This document shows, piece after piece, positions 50,840-52,532 of a DNA stretch of 64,000 nucleotides (positions within the stretch are counted from its first letter, which is position 1; each line of letters opens with the position of its first letter). The position numbers and the translations under genes were made by a program. The DNA is from Bacillota bacterium. Lineage in GTDB: Bacteria; Bacillota; Desulfitobacteriia; Desulfitobacteriales; JAJXUE01. The stretch lies in assembly GCA_021783135.1 (NCBI GenBank), contig JAJXUE010000004.1:47498-111497 (forward strand). Direction: 5' to 3'. A model generated the notes under the pieces. That model made no database searches, was not told the DNA's origin, and worked only from the letters and a program-made list of their open reading frames with translations.

Positions 50840-51130
50840 TTAACAACAGCTACCGTCTGAACAATCACAACTAGGTTCAGTTCCGGTTAGCCAGCCCTTT
50901 ATTATCGCAGAGGCACAACCGACTCCCGGCTTTACCTCTAAGGCATAAAAGAGACAATTTTTAACACAGGCGCCGCATTCGATACATCTGTCTTGATCAG
51001 CTATGACCGATTTACCGTTACACAATACAAAAACGTTATGTGGACAAACTTCAATACACTTTCCACAGCCCGTACATTTTGCCGATTCCAGTTTTAATGT
51101 CGAGACATTTTTTAAGTACCTATGCTTCAT
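50840..51130 (-). CDS. hgcB: HgcB, mercury-methylation 2x[4Fe-4S] ferredoxin
   Basis: CTGCGKCIEVCPHNVF, CIECGACVKNC, then conserved VKPGVGCASAIIKGWLTG and C-terminal CC (SDGSCC); immediately after hgcA. Confidence 0.9.
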   Translation of the reverse strand: MKHRYLKNVSTLKLESAKCTGCGKCIEVCPHNVFVLCNGKSVIADQDRCIECGACVKNCLFYALEVKPGVGCASAIIKGWLTGTEPSCDCSDGSCC

Positions 51131-51150
51131 TACACAACTCCTTAATCTGT

Positions 51151-52152
51151 TTAGATGAAACTGTTAATCAAAATCAAAACGGACCCTAAAAATATGGAGA
51201 TAATAATTGCAGGTAACGCTATTTTCATCTCTTTTAAAACGCCTGAAAAGGAGGTGAAAGTTGAAGACCCTGTGAAGTTCATAGCAAAAAAGGCGGATAC
51301 TGACGGGAATATGAGTAAATACCCTATGGCCCGTAACAAACTGTATTGGGGTACAAGAGGCCAACCATTAAGCATATTAACGCTGACAGCCCAAATAAAT
51401 CCTAATAACCAGCCTTTCCAAGCAAAAGCCCGGCCAGGAATCCATGGCAACAATAGCGGCGTTAAAACACATCCGACTATCAATGCACCCTCATAGCCGT
51501 AAAAATCGACTAAACCGAACGGCCCCAAGCCCATAAGATTCAACACAAAGAGTACCCCAAAAATCATTAACGACATCTTTAACGAATTAACCAGTTCTAC
51601 AGGAGTCAGAACCAGCCTGTCATAGATGCTGAACCTAACCGTTCGCATTTCTGTAGTAGCTCTACTCCCAGCATCAATAAACTCTCTTATGTCCTCAGCC
51701 CTTACCGGTCCATAGTTTACCCGAAAACCGGAATACTTCAATACCTCGTGCGCACTCACGCCTGATGCTCCCAGCTGTGGCAATATCAGATTTTTGTGAG
51801 CTACAATCTTGTCTAGTTGGACTATGGCAATACGGTTTAAGAGTTCTGTGGTCCCGAAAGTACCCTTGCCGGCAGCACACCAGACATTTATTCCCTTGGT
51901 ATCAAGCACTAGAATCCACGCTTTCAGGCTGTCAAGTTCTTTCCTCAAACTATCAAAGCTCAATTTGTAATTGGCCGTTACCAGCACAGGTGAATTACTA
52001 TCAGGGTTGCCCACGCTATAAAGTCCCGGCTCAACTTTATAATTCATTCGGTTAATACCCCATCTGACCTTCCAAGCGCCAAAAATATCGTGCATTGTCA
52101 ATTCAGTCGATGTTTGAGTGATTTTTATTTCTCTCCTAGTGATAATTTCCAA
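51151..52152 (-). CDS. hgcA: HgcA, corrinoid mercury-methylation protein
   Basis: Cap-helix signature NVWCAAGKGTFGT (Cys92, codon 51879-51877), CFeSP-like corrinoid domain, C-terminal multi-TM domain; TTG start. Confidence 0.92.
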   Translation of the reverse strand: MEIITRREIKITQTSTELTMHDIFGAWKVRWGINRMNYKVEPGLYSVGNPDSNSPVLVTANYKLSFDSLRKELDSLKAWILVLDTKGINVWCAAGKGTFGTTELLNRIAIVQLDKIVAHKNLILPQLGASGVSAHEVLKYSGFRVNYGPVRAEDIREFIDAGSRATTEMRTVRFSIYDRLVLTPVELVNSLKMSLMIFGVLFVLNLMGLGPFGLVDFYGYEGALIVGCVLTPLLLPWIPGRAFAWKGWLLGFIWAVSVNMLNGWPLVPQYSLLRAIGYLLIFPSVSAFFAMNFTGSSTFTSFSGVLKEMKIALPAIIISIFLGSVLILINSFI

Positions 52153-52186
52153 AATACAACCCCTCTTCTAATTCACGAATGTAAAA

Positions 52187-52204
52187 CATCAAGTTATTTT
52201 GATG
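52187..52204. promoter_or_regulatory. Operator-like palindrome upstream of hgcA
   Basis: CATCAA-GTTATT-TTGATG, 35 bp upstream of hgcA start; 15/18 identical to 52544-52561. Confidence 0.6.
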
Positions 52205-52226
52205 AATGAAGGCAAAATATAGGGGG

Positions 52227-52532
52227 TTATAGCTGAAAAATAACCCCTAATTCTTTAATATATTCTCTTAGAGCCTCCTTGTTTAGATCATAATATTTCC
52301 ATTTACCCTGTGGTATTTCGGTCACGAGTCCACTTTCCGCAAGCTCCTTCATGTGGTAAGACACTCGAGACTGGATCATGCCAAACTGTTCCATAATTTC
52401 ACAGTTACACACTCCCACTAGGTCAGTTGGACAGCGTGGTGAAGTACATTCTTTATGGTTCAGTAGCATCAGTAAAATCTTATGGCGAATTGGATCGCTC
52501 AGCGCTTGAGAGATTTTAACAATATCAATCAT
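52227..52532 (-). CDS. ArsR-family regulator with Cys-rich segment (candidate hgcAB regulator)
   Basis: MIDIVKISQALSDPIRHKILLMLLNHKECTSPRCPTDLVGVCNCEIMEQFGMIQSRVSYHMKELAESGLV. Confidence 0.92.
   Translation of the reverse strand: MIDIVKISQALSDPIRHKILLMLLNHKECTSPRCPTDLVGVCNCEIMEQFGMIQSRVSYHMKELAESGLVTEIPQGKWKYYDLNKEALREYIKELGVIFQL

What the first reader, a model, noticed from the sequence alone, without database searches (positions are those of the whole stretch)
50840..52532. hgcAB mercury-methylation locus with an ArsR regulator in a spore-former
Seen: the 333-aa protein carries NVWCAAGKGTFGT, the HgcA cap-helix motif, followed by a C-terminal multi-TM domain. The next gene is a 96-aa ferredoxin with two CX2CX2CX3C clusters, a GVGCA segment and a terminal CC pair, as in HgcB. 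Established: HgcA plus HgcB are required for microbial methylmercury formation. Inference: this organism can methylate Hg(II). Generic annotation would probably call these 'acetyl-CoA synthase corrinoid' and '4Fe-4S ferredoxin'.
Basis: partly seen in the sequence, partly recalled or inferred. Interest (0 to 1): 0.85.

Follow-up and report, generated by a model that had tools for sequence, protein, structure and literature searches.

The report
Mercury-methylation genes under arsenic-type switch
A spore-forming anaerobe related to Desulfosporosinus carries an intact pair of mercury-methylation genes (hgcA and hgcB) behind a repressor and two matching DNA switches that, in related bacteria, control arsenic-methylation and arsenic-export genes, so arsenic may decide when this cell can make methylmercury.

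Summary
51151-52152(-) is HgcA (NCBIfam HgcA equivalog, 499.6 bits, cut-off 275; AcsC model only 74.4, cut-off 306). 50840-51130(-) is HgcB (128.2, cut-off 99). 52227-52532(-) is an ArsR/SmtB repressor. All 78 HgcA columns conserved in at least 95% of 103 sequences are intact, and the protein falls in the Desulfitobacteriaceae HgcA clade. Spo0A and a GerA operon support the spore-former reading. HgcAB in such Firmicutes, and ArsR beside hgcAB, are already known.

It belongs to a lineage that in relatives controls arsM, arsP-like permeases or acr3/arsC, well separated from the ArsR preceding most Desulfosporosinus/Desulfitobacterium hgcA genes (split 100/100). All 18 sampled loci of this lineage carry two ATCAA-N6-TTGAT operators, one before arsR and one between arsR and the next gene. 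In the window that next gene is hgcA, where relatives have arsM. In D. acididurans and a probable D. acidiphilus the order is arsR-acr3-arsC-hgcA-hgcB.

Best reading: hgcAB sits in an arsenical-responsive ArsR regulon. DNA binding, inducer and Hg methylation are inferred, not shown. The locus makes a link between HgcAB's unknown native role and arsenic testable.

The parts
51151..52152 (-). hgcA, 333 aa: corrinoid-binding domain with NVWCAAGKGTFGT (Cys92) plus C-terminal transmembrane helices; TTG start
   Evidence: NF040863 499.6 bits (cut-off 275); Desulfitobacteriaceae HgcA clade, 28 rows 100/99; 78/78 columns conserved in >=95% intact
50840..51130 (-). hgcB, 96 aa: 2x[4Fe-4S] ferredoxin, CIECGA, GVGCA, terminal CC
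   Evidence: NF040864 128.2 bits (cut-off 99); cysteine positions
52227..52532 (-). arsR, 101 aa: ArsR/SmtB repressor of the arsM-associated lineage; thiols C29, C34, C42-N-C44 around the N-terminus of the third helix
   Evidence: NF033788 67.3 bits (cut-off 55); lineage split 100/100 and hgc-linked trio 100/97; CNC in 120/120 relatives; model pLDDT 90.7, nearest solved fold 6j05 As(III)-responsive ArsR
52544..52561 (-). operator O1, CATCTAAATAAGTTGATA, in the 17-nt spacer between TTGCTT and TACAAT of the arsR promoter
   Evidence: exact pattern match; same position in 18/18 loci of this ArsR lineage
52187..52204 (-). operator O2, CATCAAAATAACTTGATG, perfect 6-bp-arm palindrome between arsR and hgcA
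   Evidence: exact match; site in the gap after arsR in 18/18 loci
52540..52568 (-). promoter-like element TTGCTT-17 nt-TACAAT spanning O1
   Evidence: read from sequence; first hexamer weak, below the threshold of the consensus scan; relatives have TTGTTC/TTGACT with TATAAT at the same place

Best explanation
This is a complete hgcAB mercury-methylation locus in a spore-forming, apparently non-sulfate-reducing member of the order that holds Desulfosporosinus. It is probably co-transcribed with a dedicated ArsR repressor. HgcA takes a methyl group onto its corrinoid and gives it to Hg(II); HgcB supplies electrons and thiol handling (inferred from published HgcAB work). The ArsR dimer binds O1, embedded in the arsR promoter, and O2, in front of hgcA, and keeps arsR-hgcA-hgcB off. 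A trivalent arsenical (arsenite or methylarsenite) binding C29/C34/C42/C44 beside the DNA-reading helix would release it. The regulator comes from arsenic regulons: in relatives the same ArsR and the same two operators sit in front of arsM, arsP-like permeases or acr3/arsC. Shown: genes, lineage, operators and their conservation. Inferred: DNA binding, inducer, co-transcription, Hg methylation.
For: HMM identity. Clade and intact conserved residues. Purifying selection: dN about 0.07-0.14 with saturated synonymous change in hgcA, hgcB and arsR. Two exact operators in the window and paired sites in 18/18 lineage loci, against 6 sites in about 49 kb of the remaining sequence of those loci. Downstream genes of the lineage are arsM, ArsP_1 permease, acr3/arsC; D. 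acididurans and a second Desulfosporosinus have arsR-acr3-arsC-hgcA-hgcB. A 48%-identical relative on a Rubrobacter plasmid sits between arsM and arsH. No terminator predicted between arsR and hgcA. Published precedent: arsenic-responsive ArsR control of hgcAB in P. mercurii ND132, cited in PMC10349881.
Against: No binding, expression or methylation data. This hgc-linked trio has C-x4-C where arsM-linked relatives have CC, so the sensed species may differ. The arsR promoter first hexamer is weak. The genome's acr3 is elsewhere, behind another ArsR, so the cell does not need this ArsR for arsenite efflux.
Confidence: 0.76

Rival explanations
1. The ArsR now senses Hg(II) or another thiophilic metal instead of arsenicals, making the locus a mercury-responsive one.
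For: The hgc-linked trio shares a changed thiol spacing (C29-x4-C34 instead of CC) and forms its own clade, 100/97; in the window it precedes hgcAB directly.
Against: In two of the three hgc-linked cases the same regulator still heads acr3-arsC, which argues for arsenic; the ND132 precedent responds to arsenic (PMC10349881).
Confidence: 0.17
2. HgcAB is expressed from its own constitutive promoter and the ArsR is a neighbour without control over it.
For: A 74-bp gap separates arsR and hgcA; many relatives of this HgcA have no ArsR upstream.
Against: O2 lies in exactly that gap, no terminator is predicted there, and the paired-operator layout is kept in 18/18 lineage loci.
Confidence: 0.08
3. 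The native job of HgcAB here is methylation or handling of an arsenical; Hg methylation is incidental.
For: hgcAB occupies the position that arsM holds in relatives and lies in or beside ars genes in many Firmicutes (38 of 55 sampled loci have an arsR or acr3/arsC/arsM/permease gene near).
Against: Operon co-membership does not show substrate; D. acididurans keeps acr3 and arsC in the same operon, so hgcAB need not handle arsenic itself.
Confidence: 0.1
4. The pair is a CFeSP (AcsC/CdhE) paralogue plus ordinary ferredoxin of the Wood-Ljungdahl pathway.
For: Pfam CdhD match.
Against: AcsC-type model 74.4 bits against a cut-off of 306; HgcA model 499.6; CFeSP-type genes are encoded elsewhere in the genome on contig 51.
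Confidence: 0.01

Closest known systems
hgcAB of Desulfosporosinus / Desulfitobacterium
   Same: HgcA 74-81% identical in sampled genomes, adjacent HgcB, same clade
   Different: Most of those have another ArsR lineage upstream or none; here the arsM-type ArsR precedes hgcA directly
D. acididurans arsR-acr3-arsC-hgcA-hgcB operon
   Same: ArsR 84% identical, same two operators, HgcA 77-78%
   Different: acr3 and arsC are absent from the window locus; the genome's acr3 is elsewhere
arsR-arsM units (Peptococcaceae bacterium CEB3, D. metallireducens and others)
   Same: Same ArsR lineage, same O1/O2 layout
   Different: Target is ArsM, a SAM-dependent arsenite methyltransferase, not HgcAB; CC instead of C-x4-C in the sensor
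ArsR-like regulator of hgcAB in Pseudodesulfovibrio mercurii ND132 (Gionfriddo 2023, cited in PMC10349881)
   Same: ArsR directly upstream, reported arsenic-responsive control
   Different: Paper and sequence not held here; whether that ArsR is of the same lineage was not tested

Membership tests
HgcA | Curated HgcA HMM above cut-off | tested here: met
   NF040863 499.6 bits, cut-off 275
HgcA | N(V/I)WCA(A/G)GK cap-helix with Co-ligating Cys | tested here: met
   NVWCAAGK at 89-96, C92
HgcA | C-terminal transmembrane domain | tested here: inconclusive
   Hydrophobic C-terminal half, full-length HMM match 1-325/325; model shows long helices but mean pLDDT only 54
HgcA | Phylogenetic placement with HgcA of known methylators | tested here: met
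   Clade 100/99 with Desulfosporosinus and D. metallireducens; the latter was used as a Hg-methylating culture in PMC5038027
HgcB | HMM, two 4Fe-4S motifs, C(M/I)ECGA, C-terminal Cys pair | tested here: met
   NF040864 128.2 bits, cut-off 99; CIECGA and CC
HgcAB | Methylmercury formation in culture, lost on deletion | not testable with these tools
   needs a culture; the window is from an assembly of 67 contigs
HgcAB-like fusion | Single fused protein, NF043039 above 285 bits | tested here: not met
   192.5 bits, two separate genes
CFeSP large subunit (AcsC/CdhE) | AcsC HMM above cut-off | tested here: not met
   NF003195 74.4 bits, cut-off 306
ArsR/SmtB repressor | HMM and winged-helix fold | tested here: met
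   NF033788 67.3 bits, cut-off 55; fold match 6j05, TM 0.77
arsM-associated ArsR lineage | Clade with arsM/acr3-linked ArsRs and paired ATCAA-N6-TTGAT operators | tested here: met
   split 100/100; O1 and O2 in 18/18 loci
Arsenical-responsive repressor | Release from operator by As(III) or methylarsenite | not testable with these tools
   thiols present; binding assay needed

The most novel reading that the evidence does not exclude
HgcAB has been placed in the arsM position of an arsenic-methylation regulon because its native role is in arsenical (or general trivalent metalloid) stress, with methylmercury as a by-product; ArsR switches of different lineages were recruited to hgcAB repeatedly for that reason.
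Probability: 0.12. Interest if true: 0.85.

Novelty: new variant of a known kind. Interest (0 to 1): 0.42.

Why it matters
Why microbes carry hgcAB is an open question, and what switches it on matters for predicting methylmercury. This locus gives a concrete, small test system: one repressor, two operators of known sequence, and relatives in which the same switch controls arsenic methylation and efflux. If arsenic turns on hgcAB in Firmicutes, arsenic-contaminated anoxic sites could be methylmercury sources. The phylogenetic rejection of a single origin for hgc-linked ArsRs suggests that arsenic-type control was coupled to hgcAB more than once.

Tried and rejected
(1) CFeSP/AcsC identity: rejected by scores. 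(2) Recent transfer of hgcAB into this genome: HgcA nests among Desulfosporosinus, but the neighbouring gltD is also 85-90% identical to Desulfosporosinus, so transfer is not shown. (3) Plasmid carriage: no HgcA relative in 72,556 plasmids. (4) A genome-wide regulon of this ArsR: only five distinct ATCWA-N6-TTGAT sites in 2.7 Mb, two of them at this locus, and the backward-read control pattern also matched, so the regulon looks local. (5) Sulfate reduction: no dsrA above cut-off. (6) HgcA structure model: shallow alignment, pLDDT 54, not used. (7) An RNA hairpin in the arsR-hgcA gap: z-score -1.7, not significant. (8) First ArsR tree contained two truncated rows; repeated without them. (9) The Gionfriddo 2023 paper is not held, so the ND132 ArsR could not be compared.

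Full report
Observation. Three minus-strand genes lie head to tail: arsR 52532-52227, hgcA 52152-51151, hgcB 51130-50840. HgcA scores 499.6 bits with the NCBIfam HgcA equivalog (cut-off 275), 192.5 with the HgcAB-like fusion model (cut-off 285) and 74.4 with the AcsC-type model (cut-off 306); HgcB scores 128.2 (cut-off 99). The cap-helix Cys is residue 92 and HgcB has both cluster motifs, CIECGA and the terminal CC. Against 102 other HgcA sequences the window protein matches all 78 columns that are at least 95% conserved, and comparison with three relatives shows dN about 0.07-0.14 with saturated synonymous change. The gene pair is intact and under purifying selection.

Organism. The window lies on contig 3 of a 2.71 Mb, 67-contig, 96.7% complete assembly. 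Spo0A is present and a GerA/GerB/GerC operon lies at 14699-18617, so spore formation is likely. dsrA is absent above cut-off; two CFeSP-type genes are on contig 51.

Placement. A 104-row tree puts the window HgcA in a 28-row clade (100/99), here made up almost wholly of Desulfosporosinus and Desulfitobacterium-group sequences, nearest to a Desulfosporosinus-like genome G054 (90/80). In 60 relatives roughly half have a full-length hgcA, at 61-81% identity, so the gene is patchy.

The regulator. Most Desulfosporosinus/Desulfitobacterium hgcA genes with an ArsR upstream have a CAC-type ArsR (GERCACEIL, GEMCACQLL). The window ArsR is different: CNC at 42-44 with C29 and C34 in the preceding loop. 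In 120 database relatives CNC is invariant and most have CC at 33-34. Orthologues at 84% in G003 and G007 head arsR-acr3-arsC-hgcA-hgcB; more distant ones (51-63%) in five other genomes directly precede arsM (Acr3 and ArsM confirmed by HMM). In an 85-genome class survey the 18 loci of this lineage have arsM, an ArsP_1 permease, acr3/arsC or hgcAB downstream, one fragmentary contig excepted. On a Rubrobacter plasmid a 48%-identical relative sits between arsM and arsH. The ArsR tree splits this lineage from the others at 100/100, unites the three hgc-linked members at 100/97, and rejects a single clade of hgc-linked ArsRs (p-AU 4e-47).

Operators. CATCTAAATAAGTTGATA (52561-52544) and CATCAAAATAACTTGATG (52204-52187) are the only exact matches to CATCWAAATAASTTGATR in the window. 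The core ATCAA-N6-TTGAT, with at most one mismatch, is found 27-49 bases before arsR and 18-93 bases after it in all 18 loci; the remaining about 49 kb of those loci hold six such sites. O1 occupies the spacer between TTGCTT and TACAAT in the window, and between TTGTTC or TTGACT and TATAAT in relatives (read by eye). No terminator was found between arsR and hgcA. The layout predicts autoregulation plus control of the next gene, which here is hgcA.

Breadth. Among 55 sampled Firmicutes hgcA loci (one CFeSP locus in that printout is removed from the count), 35 have an ArsR within 2.6 kb upstream and 38 have an ArsR or acr3/arsC/arsM/permease gene nearby; for other phyla 8 and 10 of 38. A gltD control gave 0 of 29, although with shorter flanks. 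Related loci are not independent, so these are descriptions, not tests. Association of ars genes with hgcAB was already reported by McDaniel et al. 2020 (PMC7438021), and ArsR upstream of hgcA in 13 confirmed bacterial methylators in PMC10349881.

Mechanism. ArsR with free thiols holds O1 and O2; a trivalent arsenical bridges thiols next to the recognition helices and lowers affinity, giving arsR-hgcA-hgcB transcription; HgcA/HgcB then methylate Hg(II). The ArsR model (pLDDT 90.7) places C29/C34 in the loop before and C42/C44 at the start of the third helix, and its best solved match is an As(III)-responsive ArsR, 6j05. The position resembles the Cys32/34/37 site of R773 ArsR as described in PMC13236881. 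Binding, ligand and methylation are not shown.

Verdict. Real hgcAB: near certain. Known kind: yes. The variant is the pairing with an arsM-lineage ArsR and its two operators, directly in front of hgcA.

Noticed in passing
L031 1252-2457 (G022:C122:2404-3351), L075 2155-3360: hgcA interrupted by one in-frame TAG in a related genome and in a named Peptococcaceae MAG with the same split; pseudogene, or a recoded codon.
   Followed up: no
G047:C1:1574881-1575253: Decayed second copy of hgcA (stops in frame) about 5 kb from an arsR-acr3 pair, beside a full copy elsewhere in the same genome.
   Followed up: no
L023, L026-L028, L030-L033 (HgcA N-termini): HgcA of several relatives carries a Cys-rich N-terminal extension (SCCCG..., CCSSGCCCG) absent from the window protein.
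   Followed up: no
window 14699-18617: GerA/GerB/GerC spore germination operon.
   Followed up: yes
window 4164-5036: DUF1858 fused to a small nitrite/sulfite reductase domain; source of a weak dsrA hit below cut-off.
   Followed up: partly
window 49031-50727: DUF3786 gene overlapping the end of a convergent HD-domain (c-di-GMP phosphodiesterase-like) gene just downstream of hgcB.
   Followed up: partly
L079: HgcA of a Lentimicrobiaceae (Bacteroidota) MAG nests inside a Clostridia clade and is followed by acr3 and arsC: transfer or mis-binning.
   Followed up: no
L135 3471-5280, L136 5338-7146: Divergent operon next to the hgc-linked arsR: second ArsR, thioredoxin-like small protein and ArsP_1 permease.
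   Followed up: partly
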